NCBI GenBank assembly: GCA_937870585.1
Contig: CALMZE010000145.1
Location: forward strand, 1-33,330
Length of the DNA stretch: 33,330 nt
Origin: an uncultured Sphingomonadales bacterium
GTDB lineage: Bacteria > Pseudomonadota > Alphaproteobacteria > Sphingomonadales > Sphingomonadaceae
Reading direction: 5' to 3'
The notes beneath the pieces are model-generated. The model searched no databases, was not told the DNA's origin, and saw nothing but the letters and a program-made list of their open reading frames with translations. Below, piece after piece: positions 5,139 through 24,286 of the stretch (positions are counted from its first letter, which is position 1; every line of letters begins with the position of its first letter). A program made the translations under genes and the position numbers.

Positions 5139-5182
5139 TACGCAAAATGATAATGTTATTGATCAAAATGCTACTTTGCGAT
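5139..5182. promoter_or_regulatory. Candidate Lrp-type operator, copy 1
   Basis: Half-site TACGCA (5139-5144, within CTACGCAAAATG) and inverted partner TGCGAT (5177-5182, within CTTTGCGATA) are separated by exactly 32 AT-rich nt. The second half-site deviates at its last two positions. The element lies between the divergent DUF1214 (leftward) and NTF2-like (rightward) genes, 10 nt upstream of the former start codon. The same geometry recurs at four other places in the window. Confidence 0.6.
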
Positions 5183-5256
5183 ATTTCAATCGTCAATATG
5201 CTGAGCAATGCAGCGCGGCATCCCGCATTTCTTTTGAAACGGGAGAAGAGGTCAGT

Positions 5257-5682
5257 ATGGCTCATGAGGCATCACGCGGACAGATTGCTGCCGCGAAAGG
5301 GAAATTCGAACGCGCCTTCATTGTTGAAAAGGTGAAGGCCTTTCAGGCGTCCTACGCTGCGAAGGACTGGCAAGCGCGCGCCGCCTTGCTCTCCGTCGAT
5401 GTGATTTTCGAAGATACGGTGGGCGTGCCGCCACCTGCAATCGGTCGTGAAGCCGCTGCGGCCTATTTCCGGTTAATCATAGACGCCGGCTGGTCGATCG
5501 AGATGGTGCCCGAGCGCATTGTGGTGATGGGTGACGAAGCTTTTGTCGTCACGCGCGGTGCGTGGAGCGCAGGGGATGAAGCCCCTTCGCGCCTGATTCT
5601 GATCCACAATTTCAAATTTAATCGCGCTGGCGAAATCAGCCATGTGCGCATTGCCTATGATGAAGAGTGCCTGATTGACTGA
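5257..5682 (+). CDS. NTF2/SnoaL-like protein
   Basis: This 141-residue protein has the cone-shaped alpha+beta NTF2 fold pattern: an N-terminal helix (KAFQASYAAKDWQARAALLSVDVIFED), a middle GREAAAAYFRLIIDAG segment, and C-terminal strands ending in ISHVRIAYDEECL. The fold serves ketosteroid isomerases, polyketide cyclases and limonene epoxide hydrolases, and also non-catalytic proteins; no active site can be assigned. The start at 5257 has GGGAGAAGAGG upstream; readings beginning at 4990 run back through the divergent promoter and are rejected. It heads a coupled three-gene unit with an unknown protein and an Lrp-like regulator. Confidence 0.85.
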   Translation: MAHEASRGQIAAAKGKFERAFIVEKVKAFQASYAAKDWQARAALLSVDVIFEDTVGVPPPAIGREAAAAYFRLIIDAGWSIEMVPERIVVMGDEAFVVTRGAWSAGDEAPSRLILIHNFKFNRAGEISHVRIAYDEECLID

Positions 5683-6145
5683 GCGTGTCGTCGCAGCCAG
5701 CCTCAGTGCAGGCGAGACGTGTCAGGCCGGTGAGGCAGGCCAAGGGCTGGGGCTCCGTGTCGATAGCTGGATTCCGGGCATAGGTGTCATCCGCCTCGTT
5801 CATTGGCTGCGATCACCCTATCCTGAAGTCCCACTGGACGGGATTGTAGAGGATGTCTCTTCAATGCGGTGCCCCTGGGTGCAGCCAAGCGACCGAATTG
5901 ACCAGTTTCTGCCCTGCGGCGCGCGCACAAGCTTGCCCCCTTCGCGTCTGGATTGCAGAAATTTGCTGAGCGCGGACGGTCGGTTTTTGCTGGGCCTGCG
6001 CGGGTGGGACATCCCGCATGATCGGCATCTTATTCTGACTGAACTTCAGACATGGCAAGCCGACATGACGGGCCAGGCCCTGCCGCTCAAATGGTATGCC
6101 CTTGAGCGTATCTCGACGATCCCCCAGCGTGGGAGGTTCGATTGA
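5675..6145 (+). CDS. Unrecognised protein in a coupled three-gene unit
   Basis: I do not recognise this 156-residue reading frame. It begins with a TTG at 5675 that overlaps the NTF2-like stop by 8 nt and ends with a TGA overlapping the TTG start of the Lrp-like gene. Its middle and C-terminal parts look protein-like, with patches such as FLLGLRGWDIPHDRHLILTELQTW and PLKWYALERISTI, six prolines within DGIVED...LPPSRL, and no membrane helix or signal peptide. The opposite strand shows no better candidate. Translational coupling on both sides argues it is real, but the non-ATG start and lack of a recognisable family leave doubt. Confidence 0.55.
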   Translation: MTERVVAASLSAGETCQAGEAGQGLGLRVDSWIPGIGVIRLVHWLRSPYPEVPLDGIVEDVSSMRCPWVQPSDRIDQFLPCGARTSLPPSRLDCRNLLSADGRFLLGLRGWDIPHDRHLILTELQTWQADMTGQALPLKWYALERISTIPQRGRFD

Positions 6146-6738
6146 GCGAAGATGTGGGGCGTATTGCGCCTCTTGACCAACGTCAGCTGTGCGATTTGGG
6201 TGGAGAGGTCCGTTCCGAAAACTCCGGATGTCTGCCCGAATGCCAGCCTGTTGGAGACAGGCGCGCGGCGAAACATGCTGCGTCTTCGCCGGAGCTTGAT
6301 CATGCGATCATCGCTTATCTGAAACAACGTCCGCGCGCGCCACACACGGCGATTGGCAAGGCGTTGGGCACTTCAGCCGATGTGGTGGGACGCTCCATCG
6401 AGTGCATGAAGCGAACCGATGCGCTGCGAATCGTCGCCGCCAGCCATCGCGGGCCTGATCAACTGCCGAGGATGATGATCGCGCAAATTTGCGCGAAAGG
6501 CCAAGTGGATGGGCTTGAAAACCATATCAGCGCGCATCCCCATGCCATGTCCGTCTACCAATGCACGGGGCCATTCCAGCTCATAGCCTTGTTCCGTTTT
6601 GACGATATGGATCAGCTTTCGGCACTCGGTGATTACATCGCCTTGTGGCCAGAGCCGATTGGGCAGATTCGCTACAGCTTTGCGCTTGAGGTGGTGAAGT
6701 TTGATATGGCGGATCAGGTGTCAGGCCCGCGCTCCTGA
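6142..6738 (+). CDS. Lrp/AsnC-like regulator with N-terminal extension
   Basis: From residue 50 on the protein follows the Lrp/AsnC plan: LDHAIIAYLKQRPRAPHTAI, a recognition segment GTSADVVGRSIECMKRTDALRIV (about 76-98), and a C-terminal RAM-like ligand domain (AMSVYQCTGPFQLIALFRFDDMDQLSALGDY...). The usual RAM glycine-aspartate motif is replaced by GPFQ, so the effector pocket is divergent. The first 50 residues are extra, with cysteines at 17, 30 and 34. The TTG start at 6142 overlaps the preceding stop (TTGA); a later start would remove part of the extension. With the two regulators at 19562 and 20014 this makes three family members in one cluster. Confidence 0.7.
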   Translation: MSEDVGRIAPLDQRQLCDLGGEVRSENSGCLPECQPVGDRRAAKHAASSPELDHAIIAYLKQRPRAPHTAIGKALGTSADVVGRSIECMKRTDALRIVAASHRGPDQLPRMMIAQICAKGQVDGLENHISAHPHAMSVYQCTGPFQLIALFRFDDMDQLSALGDYIALWPEPIGQIRYSFALEVVKFDMADQVSGPRS

Positions 6739-6755
6739 ATGGAGGCGCGGGCCTG
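6722..6755. terminator. Bidirectional hairpin between convergent genes
   Basis: CAGGCCCGCGC (6722-6732) pairs perfectly with GCGCGGGCCTG (6745-6755), with TCC/GGA extending the stem. It overlaps the end of the Lrp-like gene and precedes the end of the convergent monooxygenase gene, the expected place for a shared terminator. No clear U-tract follows in either direction. Confidence 0.65.
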
Positions 6756-6761
6756 TCTGCG

Positions 6762-8216
6762 TTATGCGTATTGGAACTGTGAAAGGTCTGGCTTGGCCAT
6801 GGCTTCGGCAAAGGCGTCATAGCCCCAGGGCCAGGTGAGCGGCACACCGTCACCATCCAGATACCAGCTGGAGCAGCCAGTGGCGAACACAGTCTTTTTA
6901 GCGGCAGCGATGCGGCGATCATCATAGTCGGCATGGGCTTTTGCGGTTGGGGCAACCGAGACAGCCTTGCCCTCCAGCACCGGTGCCATCAACTGCGTGA
7001 GATAGTCCCACTGCCGCTCGGCAATGTCGATCAGCGAGAAATTGCCGACCGGACCGGATGGGCCGTTGAGCATGAAGAAGTTGGGAAAGCCGGGGAGCGA
7101 TACAGCATAATGTGCGGTCGGCTTCTTCGCCCAGAAATGATCAAGGTCGAGCCCGTTCTCGCCCACCACTTTGGTTGGCCGGATGAAGCGATCCACCTTG
7201 AAGCCTGTTGCCAGCGCCACCACGTCGAGCGCGTGGAAGCTGCCGTCCACCATACGGATGCCATCCTCTTCAAAGGCTGCAATCTTCCCGGTTTCAACGC
7301 TGACATTCGGCTTTTGCACCGCGTCATAATAGCACCAGCTGTAAATCAGCCGCTTGCACGCGGCATGGTAGTTGGGGCGCAGCTTTTCCCTCAGCTCCGG
7401 ATCATGCACCTTCTCTTCGAGGTTCTTGCGGCACAGCTCGGAGATTTCGCGCATCTCCGGAGAGTCCGGGTCAATAATGCCCGCGTTGAAGCGCCGGATG
7501 CCACCCCAATAGTCATCGCCATAGCGGATGGCGTCGATCTTGGCGGTGTCGGCACGGAACGCGTCGCGATCTGCTTCCGAATAGTCGAATTGCTGCACCG
7601 GCATGATCCATTGTGGAGAGCGCTGGAGATGGACCAACTGGCTCGCCTGTTCCGCCAATGCCGTGACGATCTGAACGCCGGTTGATCCACTGCCGATCAC
7701 GCCGACGCGCTTGCCTTCAACCGGCACGCTGTCATCCCAGCGCGTTGAATGCATGATCGCGCCCTTGAATTTGTCCTGGCCTTCAAATTCGGGGATATTG
7801 GGGTGATGAAGCACACCGGAGGCCGCGACGATGATGTCGGCCTTGTCCCGCGCCCCATTTGCGAGCGTTACCTGCCAGTCATGGCCCGACCAGATGCATT
7901 CAGTCACTTCTGAATTGTGCTGGATCAGATCGCCAATGCCGTATTCTTCAACGATTTTGAGGAAGTAGCCCTGAATTTCGTCCCCTGTGGCAAAGAAGGA
8001 ACTCCATTCGGCATAGGGCGCAAAGCTGTAGGTATAGCAATGCGCGGGGACGTCGCAGGTGAGCCCGGGGTAGCGGTTTTCGCGCCAGGTTCCGCCAATG
8101 GCATGGCCCTTTTCATAGACGACCATATTGGTGTGCCCAGCCTGCTTCAGCTTGATGGCGGCGAGGATGCCGGACATGCCGGCGCCGACGATGATGATGC
8201 GTTTTGACGAACTCAT
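6762..8216 (-). CDS. Flavin monooxygenase, Baeyer-Villiger type
   Basis: This 484-residue protein would use FAD and NADPH to insert oxygen beside a ketone, giving an ester or lactone. It has an FAD Rossmann motif GAGMSG (11-16), a GTWRENRYPGLTCDVPAHCYTYSF segment typical of the family, the Baeyer-Villiger fingerprint FKGxxxHSxxWD (150-161), and an NADPH motif GSGSTG (175-180). Members lacking the fingerprint are N-oxygenating FMOs, so its presence favours a ketone monooxygenase. It is the last gene of the E1-alpha/E1-beta/E2 operon; its ATG overlaps the E2 stop by 4 nt. The pairing with a 2-oxo acid dehydrogenase is unusual. Substrate unknown; steroid or terpenoid ketones are plausible. Confidence 0.9.
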   Translation of the reverse strand: MSSSKRIIIVGAGMSGILAAIKLKQAGHTNMVVYEKGHAIGGTWRENRYPGLTCDVPAHCYTYSFAPYAEWSSFFATGDEIQGYFLKIVEEYGIGDLIQHNSEVTECIWSGHDWQVTLANGARDKADIIVAASGVLHHPNIPEFEGQDKFKGAIMHSTRWDDSVPVEGKRVGVIGSGSTGVQIVTALAEQASQLVHLQRSPQWIMPVQQFDYSEADRDAFRADTAKIDAIRYGDDYWGGIRRFNAGIIDPDSPEMREISELCRKNLEEKVHDPELREKLRPNYHAACKRLIYSWCYYDAVQKPNVSVETGKIAAFEEDGIRMVDGSFHALDVVALATGFKVDRFIRPTKVVGENGLDLDHFWAKKPTAHYAVSLPGFPNFFMLNGPSGPVGNFSLIDIAERQWDYLTQLMAPVLEGKAVSVAPTAKAHADYDDRRIAAAKKTVFATGCSSWYLDGDGVPLTWPWGYDAFAEAMAKPDLSQFQYA

Positions 8217-9460
8217 AAAGATTCAATCCTCGATTTGAGGGTGTTCAGGTATTCAATCACGGGACCGCCATCAAGGGCGCGATGATCGAAGGTGAGGGAG
8301 GCTCTCAGAACCGGCCTGACAGCGATGGACCAGCCATCGCCATCGGGAATGGCCAGTGGTGTTCTGACCATGCCCGGCAAGCCCAGAAGAGCGACCTGTG
8401 GTGGGTTGAGGAGCGCTTCCGCGCGAATGACTGGCCCAACTGAGCCGGGATTGGAAATCGTGAAGGTTCCGCCTTCCATCTCATCCAGCCTCAGCCTGCC
8501 GTTCCGCGCCTTGTCTGCCCGCTCTGCAATGGCATGGGTCAGGCCAAGCGGATTGAGGCGTTCGGCATGGTTGATGACAGGAACGACGAGACCATCCGGC
8601 GTATCAACTGCGATTCCAAGATGAACCGTGTCCCACTGGAGCATCCCGTCATCATGCCAATGGGCATTGAGCCGGGGATGATCGAGCAGCGATGCCACGG
8701 CTTCATGCGCCACCAGTGCTAGAACAGAGACGCCCGGCATGGTCCTGCGCCGTGCCAGCAGCGCGGACAGATCTATCTCCATATCGGCCGTCAGAGACGG
8801 AATGGCTGCGGCCTGCACCATGCGGTTGGCAATCGTCCGCCTCCGCATGGAATGGGGAAGGAAGGTTGACTGCCCTTCAACGACAACCGGGGGAGCGGCG
8901 GAAGACACGGGCGCGGCGGCCTGCACGACTAGCGCTGATTCGGCGGAGGAAGTTGAGGCAGACGCCTTCAAAATGTCTTTCCCGGTGATCCGTCCACGTG
9001 GCCCACTGCCTTGCAATGTGCCGGGATCTACTCTGTGTAACGCAGCGAGCCTGCGCGCCAATGGCGAAATGCGCTGACCAGCCGCTGCGCTGCGCGGTAG
9101 TGGGCGCAACCCCGTCTCAAGCGACGCAAGTAAATGCGCTGGAGCCGCGACAGGCTCGACCTCGACGGCAGTCAACGGTGCCGGTTCGCCGCCCAGCAGT
9201 GTCCGAAGAGTCGCGGCGTTCGTCCCGGCAGCGGCCCATTGTCCGATGCGATCGCCAACCTTGAACTCATCGCCTTCGCTGGCCAACTGGCTGGCGAGAA
9301 CACCCGCTTCATCGGCTTCAACTTCGGTGGTCGTCTTGTCGGTTTCGATCTCGTAGAGCGTGTCGCCCGCTGCATAGGCCTCGCCAATCTGCACTTTCCA
9401 GGCGACCAGACGCGCATTTTCGACCGAGCCCATGCGGGGAATGTTGAGATCCTTGAGCAT
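8213..9460 (-). CDS. 2-oxo acid dehydrogenase E2 acyltransferase
   Basis: This 415-residue protein is the lipoyl-bearing core that transfers the acyl group to coenzyme A. Domains in order are: lipoyl domain (1-78) with the lipoylated lysine in ETDKTTTEVEA at K42; peripheral subunit-binding domain (about 130-163, ISPLARRLAA...GRITGKDIL); Ala/Pro/Ser-rich linker; and catalytic acyltransferase domain (about 200-415) with DHRALDGG, giving His393 and Asp397. The start at 9460 is chosen because MLKDLNIPRMG is the lipoyl domain beginning; the same frame continues upstream as a shadow inside the E1-beta gene. It starts 2 nt after E1-beta. No E3 gene is nearby, so a housekeeping lipoamide dehydrogenase probably completes the complex. 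Confidence 0.93.
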   Translation of the reverse strand: MLKDLNIPRMGSVENARLVAWKVQIGEAYAAGDTLYEIETDKTTTEVEADEAGVLASQLASEGDEFKVGDRIGQWAAAGTNAATLRTLLGGEPAPLTAVEVEPVAAPAHLLASLETGLRPLPRSAAAGQRISPLARRLAALHRVDPGTLQGSGPRGRITGKDILKASASTSSAESALVVQAAAPVSSAAPPVVVEGQSTFLPHSMRRRTIANRMVQAAAIPSLTADMEIDLSALLARRRTMPGVSVLALVAHEAVASLLDHPRLNAHWHDDGMLQWDTVHLGIAVDTPDGLVVPVINHAERLNPLGLTHAIAERADKARNGRLRLDEMEGGTFTISNPGSVGPVIRAEALLNPPQVALLGLPGMVRTPLAIPDGDGWSIAVRPVLRASLTFDHRALDGGPVIEYLNTLKSRIESL

Positions 9461-9462
9461 GG

Positions 9463-10446
9463 TCAGATCGCCATCAGCTGGCGCGCGGTGTCTGCAATCG
9501 ATCCGGCGGACGGGATGGCCGCCTGCTCCAGATCGGCGCTCTGGCACAAGGGAAAGTCCTTCGCGCCGAGCCGCAGCACTGGCGCTTCGAGTTCGAAGAA
9601 GATGCGCTCCTGAATCTGCGCGGCAATCTCGGCCCCCGGTCCTGCCGTGCGGAAGGCTTCGTGCACCACCATGGCGCGATGCGTGCGCGTGACGGACGCC
9701 AGCACATGATCCCAATCAAGGGGAACGAGACTGCGCAGGTCGATGACTTCGCATTCAATGCCCTCGGTGGAGAGGGTCTCTGCCGCCTCCAACGAACGCG
9801 GCACCATGGAACCATAGGTGACTATCGTCAGGTCGGCCCCCGCCCGGCGCGTCACGGCCTTGCCAATGGGCACGACAAAATCGGGATCGAGCGGCACATC
9901 GCCGCGCGACCAGCCCAGACCCTGCACCGAATGGAACAGCACCGGATTGGGTTCGCGCAGCGCGGCCTTCATGAGACCTTTGGCATCTTCAGGTGTTGAG
10001 GGGACAACTACCTTCAAGCCCGGAAAATGCATCCCGAGCACCTCGGTGCAGCTTGAATGTTCCGGCCCCGCTCCGCCCATCGCACCGATGGGGAAGATGA
10101 TGACCGCTGTCATCGGCACATCGAGACCGTGCATGTAGCGCCATTTGGCGAGCTTGTGATAAATCTCGTCGCCCGCGATCAGCGCGAAATCGCCAAAGCC
10201 CATGTTAATGACGGGCTTCATGCCGACAATAGACGCCCCGGCGGCCAACCCCGCCTCGAACGCTTCGGAGATGCCGCAGTCAATCACGCGGTCAGCTCCG
10301 AATTCGGCTACCAGCCCCTTTTCCATGCCAAACCAGCCGCCCGTGACGACGCCCTGACCCATGATGAAGATCGACTCATCAGTGCGCATTTCCTCGACAA
10401 GGCCCAGCCCCATGGCCGCGTTATAACCCATCACTTCATGCGACAT
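9463..10446 (-). CDS. 2-oxo acid dehydrogenase E1 component beta subunit
   Basis: This 327-residue protein forms the alpha2-beta2 thiamine-diphosphate E1 enzyme with the adjacent alpha subunit. Recognisable parts are the N-terminal YNAAMGLGLVEEMRTDESIFIMGQGV, the glycine-rich GISEAFEAGLAAGASIVGMKPV, the GGAGPEHSS loop near residue 127 that matches the family GPxHSQ motif, and the C-terminal transketolase-like half (LTIVTYGSMV...IDLRSLVPLDWD, VVHEAFRTAGPGAEIAAQI). The sequence is closer in feel to acetoin and related dehydrogenases than to pyruvate dehydrogenase; this cannot be settled by eye. It overlaps the E1-alpha end by 11 nt. Confidence 0.92.
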   Translation of the reverse strand: MSHEVMGYNAAMGLGLVEEMRTDESIFIMGQGVVTGGWFGMEKGLVAEFGADRVIDCGISEAFEAGLAAGASIVGMKPVINMGFGDFALIAGDEIYHKLAKWRYMHGLDVPMTAVIIFPIGAMGGAGPEHSSCTEVLGMHFPGLKVVVPSTPEDAKGLMKAALREPNPVLFHSVQGLGWSRGDVPLDPDFVVPIGKAVTRRAGADLTIVTYGSMVPRSLEAAETLSTEGIECEVIDLRSLVPLDWDHVLASVTRTHRAMVVHEAFRTAGPGAEIAAQIQERIFFELEAPVLRLGAKDFPLCQSADLEQAAIPSAGSIADTARQLMAI

Positions 10447-11377
10447 GGTAGAGATCCCTCTCGATCACCGATACATCCGGTTCTGGCGCAGCCTTCGCCT
10501 CTTCATAGGCAGTCAGCACCTCCGCCTTGGCTTCTTCCAAGATGCGCGCTGCCGCATTGCCCTTGAGCAGCCCCGCCAGCAGATCGAGCGGATCGCGATA
10601 GTCCTTCAGATAGTCATCGGGCCGGTAATGCTGCGGATCGCCTGCATAATGGCCGTGCTTGCGCGTCACCTTGGCTTCGATCAGGCTGGGGCCGTCCCCT
10701 GCCCGTGCCCGTGCTGCGGCTTCTCTGGTCGCTTCATAGACGGCCATCACATTCTGCCCGTCCACCGTGATGCCGGGAATGCCATAGCCACCGGCCAAGT
10801 CAGCGATGTTGGCTGTGGGAGAAACCTGATCGATCCGCGTGCCGACCAGCAGGCCGTTATTCTCACAAAAATAGATGAGGGGCAGCTTCCACGCCGCAGC
10901 GTGCATCATGGTTTCATGGAATGTGCCGCGCGCCGATGTGCCATCCCCGAAATTGGCGATGCTGACGCGGCCATCCTTGCGGATTTTGGACGACAGGGCG
11001 GAGCCCGCCGCAAGCGGATAGACGCTGCCGAGCGTGGCACCTTCGCCCATGATGCCCAGAGAATAATCCGCCCAGTGCGGAACGCCACCGCCCTTGCCGC
11101 GCGTCGCGCCAGTCACTTTGCCCAGCAGATCGCCCAAAATGGGGCCGGGCGCCATGCCCTTGCCGATGGCCCAGGCGCTGCCACGCCCCTGATACCAGAC
11201 ATAATCATCCGCTTCGAGCGCAGCCGTCGCACCGATAGGTGCAGCTTCCTGCCCTTCGCCGGGATGCCACCAGCCTGAGAATTTCTCTTCGCGCGTATGA
11301 CGCAACATCAGCGTTTCGATTTCGCGTGCCATGGCCATGCGATGCAGCATGGTTTCCAGCAACTCGGTGTTGGGCAT
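10436..11377 (-). CDS. 2-oxo acid (acetoin-type) dehydrogenase E1 alpha subunit
   Basis: This 313-residue protein carries the thiamine diphosphate motif: GDG at 144-146 and NN at 173-174, with the usual spacing. Other signatures are GQEAAPIGATAAL, YQGRGSAWAIGKG, GKGGGVPHWAD, and a C-terminal KHGHYAGDPQHYR, similar to the acetoin dehydrogenase branch (AcoA). Such enzymes cleave acetoin, other alpha-hydroxyketones, or 2-oxo acids, passing the acyl unit to E2. The start at 11377 has AGGAGAGG upstream; an upstream reading to 11440 would enter the promoter. It is the first gene of the leftward four-gene operon with E1-beta, E2 and the Baeyer-Villiger-type enzyme. Confidence 0.92.
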   Translation of the reverse strand: MPNTELLETMLHRMAMAREIETLMLRHTREEKFSGWWHPGEGQEAAPIGATAALEADDYVWYQGRGSAWAIGKGMAPGPILGDLLGKVTGATRGKGGGVPHWADYSLGIMGEGATLGSVYPLAAGSALSSKIRKDGRVSIANFGDGTSARGTFHETMMHAAAWKLPLIYFCENNGLLVGTRIDQVSPTANIADLAGGYGIPGITVDGQNVMAVYEATREAAARARAGDGPSLIEAKVTRKHGHYAGDPQHYRPDDYLKDYRDPLDLLAGLLKGNAAARILEEAKAEVLTAYEEAKAAPEPDVSVIERDLYHVA

Positions 11378-11432
11378 GAAGGCCTCTCCTGACGTGTGAC
11401 GCATCGCATCATGCGGTCTCGTTGAGCAAAAA

Positions 11433-11478
11433 ATACGCAAAAAACGCGAATCGTCAAATGAATTAGCGTTATGCGTAT
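11433..11478. promoter_or_regulatory. Candidate Lrp-type operator, copy 2
   Basis: ATACGCA (11433-11439) and its exact inverted partner TGCGTAT (11472-11478) are separated by 32 nt. The element sits in the 219-nt gap between the divergent E1-alpha operon and the OYE-like operon. An A-run follows the left half and a T-run follows the right half, as in copy 3. It could control eight genes at once. The remaining gap (11479-11596) has no other motif I can name. Confidence 0.65.
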
Positions 11479-11596
11479 ATTTTTAGATCGAAAAATGATG
11501 TGTTTCGATTGATCCACGTCAACATGTGCGATATGCGGTCTGCACGAAGGAGAGACAGGATATGAGAGTGCCGCTTTGCATCGCAGGAGGAGCTGC

Positions 11597-13744: not shown

Positions 13745-13778
13745 CGGGCAACAGCCTGCGGACGAGCGAGAGGATAGG

Positions 13779-14963: not shown

Positions 14964-14966
14964 CGG

Positions 14967-15728: not shown

Positions 15729-15744
15729 CCTTGGAGTTTTGACC

Positions 15745-17676: not shown

Positions 17677-17752
17677 AGAATGTCTCCTGAAAAGCGGGTC
17701 TTGCTCAAAGGTCAACTGTTGCGGGAGCGATGGTGGAGAGCGGGGTCCCCAC

Positions 17753-18535
17753 TCATAGCGGCAGATACTCCCCGCCATTGATGTCAATGGTCGCCCCGGT
17801 CATCGCGCTGAACAGGTCTGACAGGGGCATGAGGATGGCGCGTGCGCATTCCTCGTCGGTGGGGACGCGCCCCAGTGCCATATTGGCAGATATTTCGCCC
17901 ACGGACTGATCGACGCTGGGGCCACCATAGGCGGCCATATCCTCTAACCAGGCCCGTGCCGGGGCGCTCATGGTCCAGCCAATAGCAGGTGTGTTGACGC
18001 GGATATTCTTCGGGCCAAGCTCTATGGCCAGATAGCGGGTCAGCGATGCCATGGCGGCCTTGGTTGCTGCATAGCCGCCCTGATTCAGCACATATTTGCG
18101 GGCGACCTGACTGCCGACATTCACGATCGAGCCGCCGCCCTGCGCCTCCATCGCAGGCACCACCGCTCGGATCATGCGGAGTGTGCCCATCACGGTAACA
18201 TCAAAGGCAACAGCGAGATCATCCGGATCCAGCTCCAGCACAGGAGCAATCGCGGCAGGGCGATAGGCACTGTTGACGAGGCCGTCTATGCGGCCGAATT
18301 TTTCCAGCACCTTGGCCGCGACGCGCACGCAGTCCGCGTCACGGGTTATGTCTGCCTGCACGGTCAGGCAGCGCCCTCCACGCGCGACGATGGCCGCCTC
18401 AACCTCATGCATGATCCCGGATGAACGGGATACCATGGCAATATGGGCACCCATGATGGCGGCCTGTTCGGCAATGGCGCGGCCCAGTCCGGGGCCGATT
18501 CCTGTCACGATCACTGTCTTGCCTTGCAGCGGCAT
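17753..18535 (-). CDS. SDR-family oxidoreductase
   Basis: This 260-residue SDR has the nucleotide motif TGIGPGLG (11-18) and the catalytic residues Ser142, Tyr155 and Lys159 (YAATKAA). The usual NNAG motif is NSAY (88-91). The arginine in VSRSSG after the second strand favours NADP(H). The ending GATIDINGGEYLPL is normal for the family. It lies 35 nt downstream of the preceding SDR in the leftward operon and shows all catalytic residues, unlike that neighbour. Confidence 0.92.
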   Translation of the reverse strand: MPLQGKTVIVTGIGPGLGRAIAEQAAIMGAHIAMVSRSSGIMHEVEAAIVARGGRCLTVQADITRDADCVRVAAKVLEKFGRIDGLVNSAYRPAAIAPVLELDPDDLAVAFDVTVMGTLRMIRAVVPAMEAQGGGSIVNVGSQVARKYVLNQGGYAATKAAMASLTRYLAIELGPKNIRVNTPAIGWTMSAPARAWLEDMAAYGGPSVDQSVGEISANMALGRVPTDEECARAILMPLSDLFSAMTGATIDINGGEYLPL

Positions 18536-18570
18536 GGCTCAGCCTCTCAGTCGGTTGGTGTGCCGGTGCG

Positions 18571-19347
18571 TCACAGGTTCCACCCTCCGTCACACGAGAG
18601 CGTCTGGCCGGTGAGATAGGCTGCGCGGCGGGAAGCCAGAAACACTGCGGTATCGGCGACTTCTTCCGGCTGGCCGTAGCGGTGCAGCGCGATGGTGGCC
18701 TGCACAGTGCGGTGCCATTCGGCGTCAAAGGCAGTATCTTTCAACCGGTGGAAAATACCGGCATCAATCACACCGATGGCAATGGTGTTGGCCCGAACGC
18801 CGTTGCCCCCTTCCTCGCGCGCAATGCCCTTCATCAATTGCTGGATTGCGCCTTTGGGGGCGACGGACAGGACGTCGCGCTCCGGCCATTTCCCGACACC
18901 TGCCGAACCGATATGGACATAGGAGCCACCGTGCTTGCGCAGTTCCGGCAGCGTCGCGTGGACAATGTTGAAGAAGCCGTTCACGTCATTGTCGATCACG
19001 CGCCGCCACTCGTCGGGCGTGACTTCGTGGATCATGCGCATCTGTATGTCATAGCCGGTCGCCACTACCACGGTGTGCAGCCGCCCATGCCTGGCGACCA
19101 GCGCCTGCACGGCCTCAGAAATGCCCTGAGGATCGGTGACGTCGAACTGTACAAGGTCTGCGGTGACGCCATGCGCGCGGGCATTGCTCGCAGCGGCTTC
19201 GGCAGCCTCCCGATTGTTGCGGTAACCGATGGCGACATGGGTGCCTGCTGCGGCCAGCCGCTCGCAAATCACCTGCCCGGTGCCGCCGCTTCCCCCCACA
19301 ACCAGAGCAATGCCTTCGGGAAAATCTGCCTGAACTTGGCTCCTCAT
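18571..19347 (-). CDS. SDR-family protein lacking the catalytic tyrosine
   Basis: The fold is clearly SDR: a glycine motif GGSGGTG (18-24), an NDVNGFFNIVHATLPELRKHGG helix, and the ending YLTGQTLSCDGGWNL. The catalytic region is altered. Ser148 and Lys165 are in place (HIGSAG and APKGA), but the position four before the lysine, normally tyrosine, is Ser161 (DVLSVAPK). The NNAG motif is also absent (VVVATGYD). The reading frame is intact with normal composition, so this is a divergent active or binding protein and not an obvious pseudogene. GGAGATGAA precedes the start. It is first in the leftward operon whose control region holds operator copy 3. Confidence 0.88.
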   Translation of the reverse strand: MRSQVQADFPEGIALVVGGSGGTGQVICERLAAAGTHVAIGYRNNREAAEAAASNARAHGVTADLVQFDVTDPQGISEAVQALVARHGRLHTVVVATGYDIQMRMIHEVTPDEWRRVIDNDVNGFFNIVHATLPELRKHGGSYVHIGSAGVGKWPERDVLSVAPKGAIQQLMKGIAREEGGNGVRANTIAIGVIDAGIFHRLKDTAFDAEWHRTVQATIALHRYGQPEEVADTAVFLASRRAAYLTGQTLSCDGGWNL

Positions 19348-19418
19348 TTCATCTCCAGTCTCATTGTGTCTCGGCTTCTTGCGCTGCGAATCCAGATTGC
19401 AGGCGATCTGGATATTAG

Positions 19419-19470
19419 AAAATACGCAAAATGCAATTATATAAGTCCAATATATCTAAATGCGTATTTT
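19419..19470. promoter_or_regulatory. Candidate Lrp-type operator, copy 3
   Basis: This is the best copy: AAAATACGCA (19419-19428) and TGCGTATTTT (19461-19470) form a perfect 10-bp inverted repeat with a 32-nt AT-rich spacer. It lies between the leftward SDR-SDR-PhyH operon and the rightward pair of Lrp/AsnC regulators, so it could mediate both autoregulation and control of the operon. Confidence 0.7.
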
Positions 19471-19561
19471 TTGATACGTGTAAATCGGGCGATCAGTGGG
19501 GTGGCAGTTGATTGTTCCTGTGCTTTGGCATAGCGAATGCAGGAAAGGGGGACGTGTATGT

Positions 19562-20017
19562 ATGCGCCAGCTTGATGACCATGATCAGGCCATTATCGCC
19601 ATTCTTCAGGAAGATGGCCGGACGCCGATCCGCGAACTGGCGCAGCAGGTTGGCCTGAACGAAGCAACGGTGCGATCCCGGATCAGGCGGCTGGAAACGT
19701 CTGGCACGATGCGCGTTGTTGCCAAGCTCGATCTCCAGTCGATGGGGTATCAATATACGGCACTGGTCGGCATCAAGATCAGGGGCCGAACCATCGACGA
19801 TGTGGGCGCGGACCTGCTGAAGATTGACCAGATCATCTCCATCCTGTCCGTCATCGGGCGCAATGATCTGGAAATCCAGGTGATCGCCAAGGATATGGAG
19901 ATGCTCGACAAACTCCTGACAGAGACGATTCCGCAGATCGAAGGGATTGTCGGGATGGAATCTGCGCTGGCGCTTCATGTCACCAAATATGTCCAGCCAT
20001 GGGGGCGCTTCGAATGA
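19562..20017 (+). CDS. Lrp/AsnC-family transcriptional regulator
   Basis: This 151-residue protein has the complete Lrp plan: LDDHDQAIIAILQEDGRTPI, helix-turn-helix at about 22-50 (ELAQQVGLNEATVRSRIRRLETSGTM), then a RAM effector domain (about 66-142) with IGRNDLEIQVIAKD, matching the family G-x-x-D turn. The start at 19562 is the first in-frame ATG that places the HTH correctly and has GGGGGA upstream. Its stop overlaps the start of the second regulator (ATGA), so the two are made together and could form heteromers. The divergent promoter with operator copy 3 suggests autoregulation. Confidence 0.93.
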   Translation: MRQLDDHDQAIIAILQEDGRTPIRELAQQVGLNEATVRSRIRRLETSGTMRVVAKLDLQSMGYQYTALVGIKIRGRTIDDVGADLLKIDQIISILSVIGRNDLEIQVIAKDMEMLDKLLTETIPQIEGIVGMESALALHVTKYVQPWGRFE

Positions 20018-20481
20018 AGGAAATCGAACTCAGCGATCTCGATCGCCGCCTGATTGACCGGCTGGCCAGCGACGCGCGCGTCAGCAATCGCGAAATCGCC
20101 CGTGAATTCGGGCTGACCGAAGGGGCGATCCGGTTGCGCCTCAAGCGCCTGATGGACGAAAAGGCCATCCAGGTGGCAGCGGTCACCAACTATGATCAGA
20201 CGCCCTACTCGGTCGTGGCCTATCTCTGGATCGAGGTCGATGCGAGCCACCCGCACAAGCAAGTGATGGCGGCGCTGAGCGCCCGGCCAGAAATCACCTA
20301 TGTCGCTTCATTGATCGGGCGCGCGGATATTGTTGCGATCACCTGGGTCAATGATGCCTCGCATCTGGCGGACTATCTTCACAACACGATCGACCAGATT
20401 CCAGGCATCGCCCGCATCCGTTATGAGCTGACGCACCGCCTGATCAAACATGATTACCGGCTGACCACGATCGTGCGCTGA
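20014..20481 (+). CDS. Lrp/AsnC-family transcriptional regulator, second copy
   Basis: This 155-residue protein has LSDLDRRLIDRLASDARVSNREI, a helix-turn-helix at about 26-52 (REFGLTEGAIRLRLKRLMDEKAI), and a RAM domain (about 66-145) containing IGRADIVAITWVND. It differs strongly from its upstream neighbour, so the pair is not a recent duplication. The ATG at 20014 overlaps the preceding TGA; an ATG at 19999 is possible but gives only five more residues. Operator copy 4 starts immediately after its stop codon. Which of the three family members binds the dyads cannot be told from the sequence. Confidence 0.93.
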   Translation: MKEIELSDLDRRLIDRLASDARVSNREIAREFGLTEGAIRLRLKRLMDEKAIQVAAVTNYDQTPYSVVAYLWIEVDASHPHKQVMAALSARPEITYVASLIGRADIVAITWVNDASHLADYLHNTIDQIPGIARIRYELTHRLIKHDYRLTTIVR

Positions 20482-20525
20482 TACGCAAAACATCAAAAAT
20501 ATTTGATGTTTTGACGCTTTGCGTT
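20482..20525. promoter_or_regulatory. Candidate Lrp-type operator, copy 4, with nested palindrome
   Basis: TACGCA (20482-20487) and TGCGTT (20520-20525) are again separated by 32 nt. Nested inside is an 11-bp perfect inverted repeat, AAAACATCAAA (20487-20497) and TTTGATGTTTT (20502-20512). A TTGACA at 20524-20529 overlaps the right half-site and could be a -35 element for the operon starting at 20574; the -10 is not clear. The nested hairpin could instead end the regulator transcript. Confidence 0.62.
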
Positions 20526-20573
20526 GACAAATTCTCCTGAATGGCGGCAATTGTAGTTCAGCAGGAGGGGTTT

Positions 20574-21023
20574 ATGAGTCACGATACCGCACGCAGGGCA
20601 CAGGTTCGGGTGCTGTTTTCCGCGCTGATTGCGGCATATGGCGAGAAGGATTTTGAGACATTCGCGCGGTATGTGCATGTCGATGCCGTGTTTGACTGGC
20701 CCTATCTTCCGCTCAAGGTCTATCCAGACCGGGTGCGAGGGCGAGATCGCTTCATAGACATTTCGCGGGCCGGGATGGAGGATTGTGACGGCTATCATCA
20801 CACGGTCGACGCCTTTCATGACATGGCGGATCCGGACCAACTGATCGTCGAATATCATTCAAACACGGTGCTGCGCTCCACCGGGCGACCCTATGGCAAT
20901 AAATATCTGGGCATCCTCCGCTTTGAAGGCGATCAGGTCGTCTATTGGCGCGAATATGTGAATCCACTGCCGATCATCGAAGCCTTCGGGCTGGATTTCG
21001 AGAACGCTGCGGTGGCGGCATGA
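20574..21023 (+). CDS. NTF2/SnoaL-like protein
   Basis: This 149-residue NTF2-fold protein shows the N-terminal helix (VLFSALIAAYGEKDFETFARYVHVDAVFDWPY), a GRDRFIDISRAGMED segment, and C-terminal strands with NKYLGILRFEGDQVVYWREYVNPLPIIEAFG, the usual SnoaL ending. Catalytic residues cannot be assigned. AGGAGGGG precedes the start. The stop overlaps the FAD dehydrogenase start (ATGA), so it is the first gene of a tightly coupled three-gene operon. In steroid-like pathways such small proteins may act as isomerases beside a dehydrogenase; here this is speculation. Confidence 0.88.
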   Translation: MSHDTARRAQVRVLFSALIAAYGEKDFETFARYVHVDAVFDWPYLPLKVYPDRVRGRDRFIDISRAGMEDCDGYHHTVDAFHDMADPDQLIVEYHSNTVLRSTGRPYGNKYLGILRFEGDQVVYWREYVNPLPIIEAFGLDFENAAVAA

Positions 21024-22729
21024 GCGCGCTTTGGGACAAACAGGTTGACGTGCTGGTGATCGGCACGGGGGCGGGTGGCATGGCGGCTGCCGTTTTTGCA
21101 GCCGAGCGGGGTGCGTCAGTGCTGCTTATTGAAAAGAGCGGCCACTATGGCGGCACCTCTGCCACATCGGGTGGCGGCGTCTGGATTCCAGCCAGTGACT
21201 CCGCCAGGGAACAGGGGCAGGAAGACACGCCTGACGAAGCCTTCACCTATATCAAAGGGCTGACCGGCAACACCGTGGCCGACGCGCGTATCCGCGCCTT
21301 TGTCGAAAATGCCAATGTGATGAAGCGCAAGATCGAAGCCGTGTCAGACCTGCGTTTCACGGCCATTCCCTATACTGATTATCAGGCGGAAAAGCCCGGC
21401 GGCAAGATGGGCTATCGCAGCCATGCCTGCAACACGATGCACGCGAGCGACCTTTCCAAGCAGGATTTCGAGACGCTGCGCACCACGCATCCATCCGCCA
21501 TGCTGTTCGGCTATATTCCGTGGACCATCATGGAATCCGCCCCGATGATCACGCGTGGTCCGGGCTGGAAGATGACGATGGCGAAGGTCTTGTGGCGCTA
21601 TTACAGCGACATTCCCCAGCGTCTGCGTTCGTCGCGCAGCCGCTTCGTCGTGTTCGGCTCGGCCATTGCGGGCCACCTCAAAAATGCGTTCAACCGCTTT
21701 GGCGGAGAGATGTGGCTCAATGCGCCGCTGGTTGATCTGGTACGCGGTGAGAGCGGGCGTGTGGACGGGGCGGTCATCCGCCACAACGGCAAGGATGTTC
21801 GCGTTCAGGCGGGCAAAGGCATCATCATGGCGGCGGGCGGTTTCGAGCGGAACCAGCGGATGCGCGACACCTATTTGCCGGGCGAAAGCCGCCCGGAATG
21901 GTCAGGGGGTCAAGAGAACAACACTGGCGATGTGATCGAGGCCGGCATCCGCATCGGGGCCGCCACTGATCTGATGGGCGAAGCCTGGTGGGCACCCACG
22001 CTCAGCGTGCCCGGTGAAACGCGCGGGCGCCCACTCTTCTATGAGCGCGCGTTGCCCGGCAACATCATCGTCAACCAGCATGGCGAACGCTATATGAATG
22101 AGGCGCGCAGTTACGACATTGCCGGGCGGGCGATGATCGATGCCGACGCGCCAGACAAGCGGACCATCCCGTCCTGGATCGTATTCGACAGCCGTTTCCG
22201 CAACAAATATCCGATGGGTCCAGTGGTTCCGCTGATCCCGGACTGGCTGCTGCCCAAGCGGGTGCAGAAGATGTTCCACAAGGCGCGGACCATCAAGGAG
22301 CTTGCCGCCAGGATGGGCGTTGATCCTGCGCGATTGGAGAATACGATCACCCGCGTCAATCACTTTGCCAAAACTGGGCTGGACGAAGATTTTGGGCGCG
22401 GATCGCAACCCTATGATCGCTATTATGGCGACCAGTCGGTGACGCCCAATCCCAATCTCGCGCCGCTCGACGAGGCTCCTTTCTACGCGCTCAAAGTCTA
22501 TCCCGGAGACATTGGCACCAAGGGCGGAATGGCGACCGACGAATGCGCGCGCGTGCTCGATACGGCGGGGCAGGCCATTCCGGGGCTCTATGCGATTGGC
22601 AACAATGCTGCATCGGTGATGGGGCCATCCTATCCCGGCGCAGGCTCCACGCTGGCTCCGGCCATGACCTTCGGGATGCTCGCGGTGCAGGATTGCCTCG
22701 ACACCTCGGCAAACAATCAGGACGCATGA
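21020..22729 (+). CDS. FAD-dependent dehydrogenase, 3-ketosteroid dehydrogenase-like
   Basis: This 569-residue flavoprotein belongs to the fumarate reductase/3-ketosteroid delta-1-dehydrogenase superfamily. The FAD motif is VIGTGAGGMAAA (13-24) with IEKSGHYGGTSATSGGGVWIP following. The C-terminus has GLYAIGNNAASVMGPSYPGAGSTLAPAMTFG, in which Tyr538-Pro-Gly-x-Gly542 matches the YPGxG active-site segment of ketosteroid dehydrogenases as I recall it. It would introduce a C=C bond beside a ketone; other cyclic ketones are possible. The start at 21020 overlaps the preceding stop (ATGA); a longer reading from 20945 lies inside that gene. The next SDR overlaps its end in the same way. Confidence 0.9.
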   Translation: MSALWDKQVDVLVIGTGAGGMAAAVFAAERGASVLLIEKSGHYGGTSATSGGGVWIPASDSAREQGQEDTPDEAFTYIKGLTGNTVADARIRAFVENANVMKRKIEAVSDLRFTAIPYTDYQAEKPGGKMGYRSHACNTMHASDLSKQDFETLRTTHPSAMLFGYIPWTIMESAPMITRGPGWKMTMAKVLWRYYSDIPQRLRSSRSRFVVFGSAIAGHLKNAFNRFGGEMWLNAPLVDLVRGESGRVDGAVIRHNGKDVRVQAGKGIIMAAGGFERNQRMRDTYLPGESRPEWSGGQENNTGDVIEAGIRIGAATDLMGEAWWAPTLSVPGETRGRPLFYERALPGNIIVNQHGERYMNEARSYDIAGRAMIDADAPDKRTIPSWIVFDSRFRNKYPMGPVVPLIPDWLLPKRVQKMFHKARTIKELAARMGVDPARLENTITRVNHFAKTGLDEDFGRGSQPYDRYYGDQSVTPNPNLAPLDEAPFYALKVYPGDIGTKGGMATDECARVLDTAGQAIPGLYAIGNNAASVMGPSYPGAGSTLAPAMTFGMLAVQDCLDTSANNQDA

Positions 22730-23598
22730 GCATGAACAAAATCGCATTGGTGACGGGCGCAAGCCGGGGCGTGGGCGCTGGCATTGCGCGCGGCTTAGGG
22801 GAATTGGGCTATACAGTTTATGTCACCGGACGCAGCGCCACGGTGAGCGGAGCCAAGGGCTGGGATGGAACGCCGCTGCCCGGCACGCTCGCCGAAACGG
22901 CTGCGTCTGTCACGGCGGCAGGTGGCAAGGGCATTGCCGTGCCGTGCGACCACGCCGACGATGCACAGGTGGCTGCCGTGTTTGCGCAGATTGCAGCGGA
23001 GCAAGGCCGACTTGACATGCTGGTCAACAATGCCGCTTTCATGCACCACCAGTTGATCGAATCCCGGCCGTTCTGGGAGAAGGAATTGGAGGCGGTCGGC
23101 ATTCTCGATGTGGGCCTGCGCTCCTCCTATGTCGCCAGTTGGCACGCGGCGCGCATGATGGTGCCACAGGGATCGGGCCTCATCGCCTTCACATCATCCT
23201 TCGGGGCGAGCTGTTACATGCACGGCCCGGCCTATGGCGCGCAAAAGGCGGGCGTGGACAAACTGGCGCACGACATGGAGCATGATCTGCGCGGAACCGG
23301 TGTGGCTGCTGTCTCGATCTGGCTGGGGATGCAGGTGACCGAGCGCGCGCAAAATGCCGCCAAGACCAGCCCAGCGCAGTTCGAAGCAATGATGGCGATG
23401 GCCGAAAATCCTGAATTCACGGCGCATATCCTCGCGGCGATTGATGCATCGCCCGATCGAGATGCGCTGTCTGGTCAAACGCTGATCGGTGCGGAAATCG
23501 CAAAGATGTTGGGCGTGACCGACCGGGGGGAAGCGCGGATTTCGCACCGCGAATTCCTCGGCAGTCCCCGCCCGAAAAATCCGGCTGCCGTCTATTGA
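22726..23598 (+). CDS. SDR-family oxidoreductase, DHRS1-like
   Basis: This 290-residue SDR has TGASRGVG (10-17), NNAA (101-104) and the catalytic residues Ser157, Tyr170 and Lys174 (YGAQKAG). The insertion after VYVTGRSATVSGAKGWDGTPLPGTLAETA is the feature that makes it resemble the DHRS1 branch. Two ATGs are possible, 22726 (overlapping the previous stop) and 22732. It closes the operon with the NTF2-like and FAD-dependent proteins. The gene ends at a strong hairpin shared with the convergent neighbour. Confidence 0.9.
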   Translation: MSMNKIALVTGASRGVGAGIARGLGELGYTVYVTGRSATVSGAKGWDGTPLPGTLAETAASVTAAGGKGIAVPCDHADDAQVAAVFAQIAAEQGRLDMLVNNAAFMHHQLIESRPFWEKELEAVGILDVGLRSSYVASWHAARMMVPQGSGLIAFTSSFGASCYMHGPAYGAQKAGVDKLAHDMEHDLRGTGVAAVSIWLGMQVTERAQNAAKTSPAQFEAMMAMAENPEFTAHILAAIDASPDRDALSGQTLIGAEIAKMLGVTDRGEARISHREFLGSPRPKNPAAVY

Positions 23599-23608
23599 GG
23601 GCAGCCGG
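23581..23608. terminator. Bidirectional hairpin between convergent genes
   Basis: CCGGCTGCC (23581-23589) and GGCAGCCGG (23600-23608) form a perfect 9-bp stem with a 10-nt loop. It covers the SDR stop codon and lies just before the end of the leftward NTF2-like gene. No strong U-tract follows in either direction. Confidence 0.65.
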
Positions 23609-23616
23609 TTGCCGCG

Positions 23617-24153
23617 TCAGGCGGGCGGAATGCCCTGATTGAGGCTGTCAATGATCCGGCGCTTCATCGGAGCAACCCAATCGCGTTCAAGGGCTTCATT
23701 GAGCAGACCGGCTTCCTTGAGTTCGTCGCACAGCTTCATCTGGTGGCCAATGTCGAACAGGTCATATTGCGACGAGAATTTGCCGCTACCACCATAGGTG
23801 ATGAAACTGACGCCTTCGGTTTCGTAATAGCTGCCATCGGCGCGCTTACCGGGGCCGCGATTGACCCAGCGGCTGAAAATCTGGTCTCCATTTACCGCAA
23901 AGCTGATGATCGGGAAGCTCCAGCCTGTCCATCCCGAGCCGACATCCATGTCGCGCCCGTAATGCGTCGCGCGGATTTCATCACGGCTGCGTGCAAAGAC
24001 GGGCATCGCGCCGCCATAAGGGCAGAAATAGGTCGCGTCTTCATGGTAGAGCGCATCGGCGATCCACGCCCATGTGTTGCGTTTCTCAGCCTCTACAAAC
24101 GCATCGCGCAACGCGATGATGGCGGCTTCCACCTCTTCCTTGGGGTAAGACAT
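23617..24153 (-). CDS. NTF2/SnoaL-like protein, long form
   Basis: This 178-residue protein shows an NTF2-like pattern: VEAAIIALRDAFVEAEKRNTWAWIADALYHEDATYFCPYG, a SRDEIRATHYGRDMD segment, and strands with SFPIISFAVNGDQIFSRWVNRGPGKRADGSYYETEGVSFITYGGSGKFSSQYDLFD. It has a longer C-terminal helix than its relatives in the window. GGAGAATGCA precedes the start. It is a single-gene unit divergent from the sulfotransferase operon, and both share the control region with operator copy 5. Confidence 0.85.
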   Translation of the reverse strand: MSYPKEEVEAAIIALRDAFVEAEKRNTWAWIADALYHEDATYFCPYGGAMPVFARSRDEIRATHYGRDMDVGSGWTGWSFPIISFAVNGDQIFSRWVNRGPGKRADGSYYETEGVSFITYGGSGKFSSQYDLFDIGHQMKLCDELKEAGLLNEALERDWVAPMKRRIIDSLNQGIPPA

Positions 24154-24217
24154 TGCATTCTCCTTCCATCACCACCCTAACCTCTCGGCAGCGTCGGTCA
24201 AGCGGTGACTTGATGAA

Positions 24218-24286
24218 TGCGTATGAAAATACCATATATGACTACGCAAAACGTAGTTCAATGAGAGGACATATACGCTATGCGCG
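24218..24286. promoter_or_regulatory. Candidate Lrp-type operator, copy 5, with extra half-site
   Basis: TACGCA (24243-24248) is followed after exactly 32 nt by TGCGCG (24281-24286). The right half overlaps the sulfotransferase start codon and is the weakest of the ten half-sites. A better third half-site TGCGTA (24218-24223) lies 19 nt to the left in the everted orientation. The left TACGCA is also part of a small palindrome, CTACGCAAAACGTAG. The region serves the divergent NTF2-like gene and the sulfotransferase operon. Confidence 0.5.

What the first reader, a model, noticed from the sequence alone, without database searches (positions are those of the whole stretch)
5139..24286. Five dyads TACGCA-N32-TGCG with identical 32-nt spacing define a dispersed regulon
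Each of the five control regions of the core cluster (5139-5182, 11433-11478, 19419-19470, 20482-20525, 24243-24286) has a TACGCA half-site and an inverted TGCG partner separated by exactly 32 nt. Two copies are perfect over 7 or 10 bp. Together they could govern nearly all genes from 4034 to 26737. Half-sites 38 bp apart centre to centre fit a higher oligomer that wraps DNA, as known for Lrp/AsnC octamers. Three such regulators are encoded inside the same segment.
Basis: partly seen in the sequence, partly recalled or inferred. Interest (0 to 1): 0.85.

Follow-up and report, generated by a model that had tools for sequence, protein, structure and literature searches.

The report
Conserved operators of paired Lrp/AsnC regulators
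Five evenly built DNA control sites in a bacterial steroid-like degradation gene cluster are real, conserved in related species, and are most likely bound by two neighbouring Lrp/AsnC-type regulators that together switch the whole cluster.

Summary
TACGCA-N32-TGCG occurs at 5 places in the 33-kb window against 4 matches in the other 3.77 Mb of the genome. The dyad recurs at orthologous promoters of 9 related clusters.

The 38-bp distance between hexamers is better read as two quasi-palindromic arms (TACGCAWWnCG) with centres 31 bp apart, three helical turns, a spacing known for Lrp/AsnC dimers. The same arm also occurs facing outward, again 31-32 bp between centres. Such out-facing sites peak at that spacing in genomes with an LrpA homologue (84 of 99 matches), not clearly in genomes without (8 of 16); related genomes are counted separately.

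Two AsnC genes, LrpA and LrpB, lie side by side in 30 of 30 loci examined. The third 'regulator' (6142) scores just below cut-offs and is not conserved.

Sites overlap putative core promoters or start codons, so steric repression is the likeliest mode; activation at OYE and SnoaL is not excluded. Binding, ligand and direction of control are untested. Most novel reading: an LrpA/LrpB hetero-oligomer whose subunits read different halves of each arm.

The parts
5139..5182 (+). Site 1: in-facing dyad between DUF1214 gene (-) and SnoaL-like gene (+); left arm begins 11 bp from the DUF1214 start codon
   Evidence: no counterpart in the other clusters, where DUF1214, if found, lies elsewhere
11434..11477 (+). 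Site 2: full dyad TACGCA-N32-TGCGTA between E1-alpha (-) and OYE (+)
   Evidence: same place in 8 of 8 clusters (window included) that hold this OYE region
11430..11457 (-). putative E1-alpha core promoter TTGACG-N16-TATTTT laid over the left arm of site 2
   Evidence: GTCAA at the same site position in 6 of 6 clusters with E1-alpha next door, 0 of 2 without; boxes assigned by eye
11509..11537 (+). putative OYE core promoter TTGATC-N17-TATGCG at fixed distance from site 2
   Evidence: TTG at site position 75/76 in 7 of 8 clusters, TTGA in 6 of 8 (0 of 2000 shuffles; motif chosen after seeing the sequences)
19419..19470 (+). Site 3: full dyad with 10-bp arms between SDR (-) and LrpA (+)
   Evidence: before LrpA in 7 of the 10 clusters (window included)
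20482..20525 (+). Site 4: dyad between LrpB and SnoaL-like gene; right half abuts the -35 box TTGACA (20524-20529)
   Evidence: 9 of 10 clusters (window included); TTGACA at site position 43 in 8 of 9, 44 in one
24218..24286 (+). Site 5: third arm TGCGTA 24218-24223 plus dyad 24243-24286; right half includes the start codon (24280) of the sulfotransferase-like gene
   Evidence: third arm 25 bp upstream in 5 of 5; arm centres 32 and 31 bp apart (32 and 32 in L079); the same start is annotated on pNL2
24210..24238 (+). putative sulfotransferase promoter TTGATG-N17-CATATA under the third arm
   Evidence: TT[GT]-N20-CAT in 5 of 5 (pattern chosen after seeing the sequences)
19562..20017 (+). LrpA: Lrp/AsnC regulator, HTH plus ligand domain
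19999..20481 (+). LrpB: second Lrp/AsnC regulator, overlapping LrpA
6142..6738 (+). AsnC-like frame just below Pfam cut-offs, probably not part of the system
   Evidence: below cut-offs; no counterpart seen
4034..5128 (-). DUF1214 protein, predicted target
6762..11374 (-). FMO-like, E2, E1-beta, E1-alpha (2-oxoacid dehydrogenase type), predicted targets of site 2
11576..16695 (+). OYE (BaiCD-like, below cut-off), MFS, SDR, alpha/beta hydrolase, predicted targets of site 2
16702..19347 (-). PhyH-like, SDR, SDR, predicted targets of site 3
20541..23598 (+). SnoaL-like, 3-ketosteroid-dehydrogenase-like flavoprotein (below cut-off), SDR, predicted targets of site 4
23617..26737 (.). SnoaL-like (-); sulfotransferase-like, Coq4-like, SnoaL-like (+), predicted targets of site 5

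Best explanation
The five dyads are operators of a local regulon controlled by the adjacent Lrp/AsnC regulators LrpA (19562-20017) and LrpB (19999-20481). Each arm (consensus aTACGCAWWnCG, an imperfect ACG-N5-CGT palindrome) is the site of one regulator dimer. Two arms, three in site 5, with centres 31-32 bp apart put the dimers on one face of the helix, so that a tetramer or octamer bridges them and bends or wraps the A/T-phased DNA between. Bound, the complex covers putative core promoters or translation starts (E1-alpha -35/-10, SnoaL -35, sulfotransferase promoter and start codon, DUF1214 leader) and so most likely represses the cluster until a pathway metabolite binds the ligand domains. 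Shown: sites, conservation, spacing rule, regulator pairing, co-occurrence of motif and regulator subfamily. Inferred: binding, oligomer, ligand, repression. The confidence given is for regulators and geometry; given those, repression has about 0.6.
For: Local enrichment. The dyad at orthologous places in 9 other clusters; counts with the window included: 8 of 8 at E1-alpha|OYE, 9 of 10 after LrpB, 7 of 10 before LrpA, 5 of 6 at SnoaL|sulfotransferase, one of these with N33. Arm pairs peak at 31/32 bp in both facing arrangements: in 444 kb of other loci in-facing 6 and out-facing 6, other spacings of these two arrangements at most 1 (5 of the 6 in-facing pairs lie in loci fetched for such dyads, 2 of the 6 out-facing had been seen; same-direction pairs are too few to judge). 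Out-facing pattern at N20/21: 84 of 99 matches in 41 genomes with an LrpA homologue, 8 of 16 in 42 genomes without (Fisher p 0.004, not corrected for relatedness). AsnC gene in the fetched stretch (9-18 kb) for 10 of 38 N20/21 loci, 0 of 13 loci with other spacings. AsnC pair in 30 of 30 loci. The palindrome centre of the arm (position 7) is also the only centre that makes in- and out-facing spacings equal (my arithmetic). Phased A/T. Literature: Lrp dimers on 13-17 bp sites, two or three helical turns centre to centre (PMC2995911, passages).
Against: No binding or expression data. The OYE -35 lies 31 bp beyond the dyad and the SnoaL -35 abuts it, positions that also suit an activator. LrpA's own putative promoter lies at variable distance. 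The site is missing at some orthologous places (G061 SnoaL|sulfotransferase; L077 after LrpB; L076, L079 and G189 before LrpA). 28 of 38 out-facing loci have no AsnC gene in the fetched stretch. 7 of the 21 genomes have the LrpA homologue but no out-facing match at all. A second LrpA relative in G071 showed no LrpB beside it (G071b). The 30 aligned sites were chosen by the pattern itself.
Confidence: 0.8

Rival explanations
1. Rival on direction only: same regulators and sites, but the bound complex activates, class-II-like at the SnoaL promoter (arm centre near -41) and from a distance at OYE (near -74 and -105).
For: TTGACA abuts the right half in 8 of 9; OYE -35 at fixed position 75/76 in 7 of 8; weak -10 boxes at SnoaL, judged by eye.
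Against: The putative E1-alpha promoter and the sulfotransferase promoter and start codon lie under arms; out-facing sites of the related subfamily sit directly before Shine-Dalgarno plus start in 27 of 66 arms, against 6 of 285 single arms, many of which may lie inside genes.
Confidence: 0.35
2. A regulator encoded elsewhere reads TACGCA, and the AsnC pair is a bystander.
For: 28 of 38 out-facing loci of the first genome set lack an AsnC gene in the fetched stretch.
Against: No clear spacing peak in genomes without the LrpA homologue; in the second set sites crowd on the contig of the AsnC pair (for example G050, G185, G228, G265, G295); the spacing is that of Lrp dimers.
Confidence: 0.08
3. 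The dyads are chance matches or decayed repeats with no function.
For: TACGCA alone is not enriched; the N30-34 pattern is not enriched genome-wide; no N32 peak over the family.
Against: Conservation at orthologous promoters with diverged spacer sequence.
Confidence: 0.01
4. LrpA/LrpB are a heterodimeric enzyme like siroheme decarboxylase AhbA/AhbB and not transcription factors.
For: AhbA/AhbB are paired Lrp/AsnC-like proteins (PMC4145669, passages).
Against: AhbB and AhbA models give LrpA 29 and 23 bits against cut-offs of 125 and 140, and LrpB no hit; the closest solved relatives include DNA-binding FL11/PH1519.
Confidence: 0.03

Closest known systems
Lrp/AsnC (feast/famine) regulators, e.g. 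Pyrococcus FL11/PH1519, E. coli Lrp and AsnC
   Same: HTH plus ligand-binding domain; quasi-palindromic dimer sites; centre spacing of three helical turns; A/T-rich DNA between
   Different: Two different regulators encoded side by side; a strict CG-containing core TACGCA instead of a degenerate motif; arms occur in both orientations with one centre spacing
Two contiguous Lrp/AsnC genes in the bile-salt cluster of Sphingobium sp. Chol11 (PMC12882949, section 20)
   Same: Adjacent AsnC pair inside a sphingomonad steroid cluster
   Different: No operator or test reported for them in that section; homology to LrpA/LrpB not tested here
AhbA/AhbB siroheme decarboxylase
   Same: Paired Lrp/AsnC-fold proteins that form heterodimers
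   Different: Enzyme of haem synthesis; models match LrpA only weakly and LrpB not at all

Membership tests
Lrp/AsnC transcription regulators | AsnC-type HTH plus Lrp/AsnC ligand domain above Pfam cut-off | tested here: met
   LrpA and LrpB; 6142 just below both cut-offs
Lrp/AsnC transcription regulators | multiple dimer sites spaced by whole helical turns | tested here: met
   31/32 bp (dimer binding itself inferred)
Lrp/AsnC transcription regulators | (quasi-)palindromic dimer site of about 13-17 bp | tested here: inconclusive
   Arm TACGCAWWnCG: strong outer half, weak inner half (position 11 G in 43 of 60 arms, position 10 C in 34 of 60); weaker in the related subfamily
Lrp/AsnC transcription regulators | octamer or other higher oligomer that wraps DNA | not testable with these tools
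   needs purified protein; phased A/T only suggestive
Lrp/AsnC transcription regulators | small-molecule effector | not testable with these tools
   none
known equivalogs (LrpA, AsnC, Lrp, LysM, ChrS) | NCBIfam equivalog cut-off reached | tested here: not met
   best 67.6 bits against 250 for LrpA (NF040820)
AhbA/AhbB siroheme decarboxylase | NCBIfam cut-off reached | tested here: not met
steroid/bile-acid catabolic cluster | 3-ketosteroid dehydrogenase or BaiCD models above cut-off | tested here: not met
   best-scoring models are 3-ketosteroid-delta-1-dehydrogenase (510 of 789 bits) and BaiCD (465 of 825)

The most novel reading that the evidence does not exclude
LrpA and LrpB form an obligate hetero-oligomer: in each arm LrpB reads the invariant half TACGCA and LrpA the variable half, so that a two-gene regulator with a permutable arm grammar (in-facing or out-facing, always 31-32 bp between dimer centres) serves many catabolic clusters in Sphingomonadaceae. 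Support: pairing in 30 of 30 loci (but a second LrpA relative in G071 showed no LrpB neighbour). Between the window type and the out-facing subfamily LrpB keeps 53% identity in the HTH and 21% in the ligand domain, LrpA 42% and 30%. The outer half of the arm is shared by both subfamilies (though part of the search pattern) and the inner half differs.
Probability: 0.35. Interest if true: 0.75.

Novelty: new variant of a known kind. Interest (0 to 1): 0.6.

Why it matters
Lrp/AsnC sites are usually too degenerate to predict from sequence. Here a strict motif and spacing rule predict candidate sites and regulated genes in many Sphingomonadaceae, link an uncharacterised regulator pair to catabolic clusters that look steroid-related, and give a clean system to test whether bacterial Lrp proteins work as hetero-oligomers on phased DNA.

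Tried and rejected
The 38-bp 'half-site' geometry was replaced by 31-bp dimer spacing, because only arm centre position 7 equalises in- and out-facing spacings and it is also the palindrome centre. The third AsnC frame (6142) was rejected. A family-wide N32 peak for the in-facing dyad was looked for and not found. Dyads upstream of the roughly 45%-identical LrpA relatives were sought by plain inverted-repeat search without a common result; out-facing arms in three of them (G107, G168, G200) were seen by eye there and then tested elsewhere. Same-direction arm pairs at 31/32 bp were looked for and are too few to judge: 2 in the first set and 1 in the second. The paper search for TACGCA with AsnC listed 7 papers; I opened only PMC8707732 (passages), where TACGCA is in a primer. 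Passages of PMC10653915 held nothing on AsnC. In the listings of ten paper searches I saw no report of this operator; only open-licence PMC papers are held, and regulon databases such as RegPrecise could not be searched. Structure prediction was not run: a monomer model would not settle pairing or binding. Rows dropped: L078 and L080 lie on contigs of the same length as those of G118 and G084 and match them, so they were left out as duplicates; of 32 listed sites, two with N33 (L079 site 5, pNL2 28122) were left out of the 30-site alignment, whose column statistics are circular for TACGCA and TGCG; two sites were printed twice because L127 and L128 overlap, and the window's own out-facing site was not among the loci; G331 was left out of the genome comparison because it had not been scanned for LrpA; L055 (G224) was left out of the groups.
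Full report
Check of the observation. TACGCA alone is no more frequent than chance (10 found, 7.2 expected). In the whole genome (3.80 Mb, the window is contig C145) the N30-34 pattern has 18 forward and 13 reverse matches against 22 and 31 for the reversed control, so it is not a genome-wide motif. At exactly N32 there are 7 matches (5 places) in this 33-kb window and 4 in all the rest, where about 0.035 would be expected in the window.

Surroundings. The genes are of catabolic kind: 2-oxoacid dehydrogenase E1/E2, an OYE flavoenzyme, MFS transporter, four SDRs, four SnoaL-like proteins, a phytanoyl-CoA-dioxygenase-like protein, a KstD-like flavoprotein, a sulfotransferase-like and a Coq4-like protein. 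NCBIfam puts the flavoprotein nearest 3-ketosteroid-delta-1-dehydrogenase and the OYE nearest bile-acid BaiCD, both below cut-off. A steroid-like or terpenoid substrate is therefore an inference. Two AsnC genes overlap at 19562-20481.

Conservation. LrpA is found at E <= 1e-15 in 41 of 298 family genomes, the own one included. Relatives of 61-75% identity lie in syntenic clusters: pNL2 of N. aromaticivorans, G061, G189, G118, G084, and, from named genomes, N. jiangmenense, N. endophyticum and two MAG fragments. With the window there are ten clusters. The N32 dyad is at the E1-alpha|OYE region in 8 of 8 clusters that hold it, after LrpB in 9 of 10 (L076 ends there, so its SnoaL gene is not seen), before LrpA in 7 of 10, and at SnoaL|sulfotransferase in 5 of 6, one of them with N33. 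Misses: G061 has the SnoaL and sulfotransferase genes but no N32 dyad between them; L077 has none between LrpB and SnoaL, where the genes nearly touch; none was found before LrpA in G189, L076 and L079. Site 1 of the window has no counterpart. In 20-35 kb around an LrpA of only 46-48% identity (G107, G168, two places in G071) there is no TACGCA-N32-TGCG.

Geometry. Aligning 30 dyads (chosen by the pattern, so TACGCA and TGCG are conserved by construction) shows further conserved columns: W at 7-8, G at 11, and their mirror. Each arm reads TACGCAWWnCG, an imperfect ACG-N5-CGT palindrome centred on position 7. Two arm centres are then 31 bp apart. In site 5 a third, out-facing arm lies 25 bp upstream in 5 of 5 clusters, which gives centres 32 and 31 bp apart (32 and 32 in L079). 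Pairs of ACGCAWW arms in 444 kb of other loci peak at 31/32 bp in both facing arrangements (in-facing 6, out-facing 6; every other spacing of these two at most 1). Five of the six in-facing pairs lie in loci that I had fetched because they hold such dyads; of the six out-facing pairs two (G168, G200) had been seen before. Same-direction pairs are too few to judge. A/T content in the spacer is phased (column permutation p 0.0004 for periods of 9.5-11.5 bp, strongest period 11.5-12 bp; the sites are related, so this is suggestive).

Link to the regulators. In-facing ACGCAWWN{28,29}WWTGCGT (N32/N33) in 21 genomes gave 41 matches against 1 for the control; some of these genomes had been chosen for such dyads. 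Out-facing WWTGCGT-N18..23-ACGCAWW was searched in all 41 genomes with an LrpA homologue (20 of the 21, and the 21; G331 left out) and in 42 without one at E <= 1e-15. N20/21, that is 31/32 bp between centres, make up 84 of 99 and 8 of 16 matches (counted by me; Fisher p 0.004), or 2.0 and 0.2 per genome. The genomes are not independent: 22 of the 48 matches come from five species of the window's genus, several of them with near-identical sites, and the two g34 genomes share one site. 7 of the 21 genomes have no match. In the second set the sites crowd on the contig of the AsnC pair. In fetched stretches of 9-18 kb an AsnC gene was found for 10 of 38 N20/21 loci and 0 of 13 loci with other spacings, so 28 of 38 have no AsnC neighbour and would be regulated in trans or be something else. 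In 327 kb of ten genomes, stretches that I fetched around sites and AsnC pairs, there are 33 out-facing pairs at 31 bp and no other out-facing spacing more than once; because of that choice this is a description and not an independent test. The in-facing dyad over the whole family shows no N32 peak; it belongs to the narrow window-type group.

Pairing. In 30 of 30 loci (the best match in each of 30 genomes) two AsnC genes lie side by side, and so they do in the named relatives. One exception: a second, 46%-identical LrpA relative in G071 showed no LrpB hit beside it (G071b). Between the window type (5 loci) and the out-facing subfamily (12 loci) LrpB keeps 53% identity in the HTH but 21% in the ligand domain; LrpA keeps 42% and 30%. 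The outer half TACGCA is common to both groups of sites (it was part of the search pattern), while the inner half differs (CG in the window type; T or TCA, weakly, in the other). This is what an LrpB/LrpA heterodimer would give, but it is not a proof.

How it works. The E1-alpha -35 box (TTGAC on the minus strand) lies at one position inside the dyad in 6 of 6 clusters with E1-alpha next door and in 0 of 2 without; its -10 box overlaps the left arm. The SnoaL TTGACA abuts the right half in 8 of 9 clusters and lies one base further in the ninth. The sulfotransferase promoter and start codon lie under the three arms of site 5. Out-facing sites of the other subfamily sit right before Shine-Dalgarno plus start in 27 of 66 arms (21 of 33 sites on at least one side), against 6 of 285 unpaired arms, many of which may lie inside genes. 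These places favour repression. The OYE -35 at a fixed 75/76 position in 7 of 8 clusters would suit either an activator or an array that reaches into the promoter. LrpA's own putative promoter lies at variable distance. Promoter boxes were assigned by eye and then counted.

Comparison with the known. Lrp/AsnC dimers bind 13-17 bp sites whose centres are two or three helical turns apart, and higher oligomers wrap DNA (PMC2995911, passages); 30-31 bp periodicity is noted in PMC8707732 (passages). LrpA and LrpB are nearest FL11/PH1519, PH0140 and 7fby among solved structures and reach no NCBIfam equivalog cut-off. Hetero-oligomers of such proteins have been suggested for an archaeal family (PMC4236453, passages). 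A 2026 paper notes two contiguous Lrp/AsnC genes in the bile-salt cluster of Sphingobium Chol11 and reports no operator for them in its section on regulation (PMC12882949, section 20 and passages). I saw no report of this operator in the listings of ten searches of open-licence papers.

Verdict. The finding is real and better than it looked: a conserved operator grammar for a paired AsnC system. It is a new variant of a known kind. Binding, ligand and sign of regulation remain to be tested.

Noticed in passing
L097 (G189:C1:2213238), L099 (G084:C4:5290 and 6990), L061:28122: Further in-facing N32 or N33 dyads outside the syntenic cluster or at its edge, the last (N33) beside a TonB-receptor gene on pNL2; possible further regulon members.
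   Followed up: partly
L161-L180 (G050, G185, G269, G295 and others): A related AsnC-pair subfamily has up to six out-facing TGCGTA-N18-TACGCA sites around its own cluster, many directly before Shine-Dalgarno and start.
   Followed up: partly
L068-L069 (G084): A second, more distant pair of AsnC genes (31% and 28% identical to LrpA and LrpB) lies a few kb from the first.
   Followed up: no
window 5675-6738: A frame without any Pfam family followed by an AsnC-like frame with TTG start, just below cut-offs; may be decaying genes.
   Followed up: no
window 29675-31159: RPE65/carotenoid-oxygenase family gene outside the regulon segment.
   Followed up: no
window 20482-20525: The spacer of site 4 holds an extra palindrome CATCAAAAATATTTGATG, seen by eye; a similar CATCA...TGATG is in the G118 copy.
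   Followed up: no
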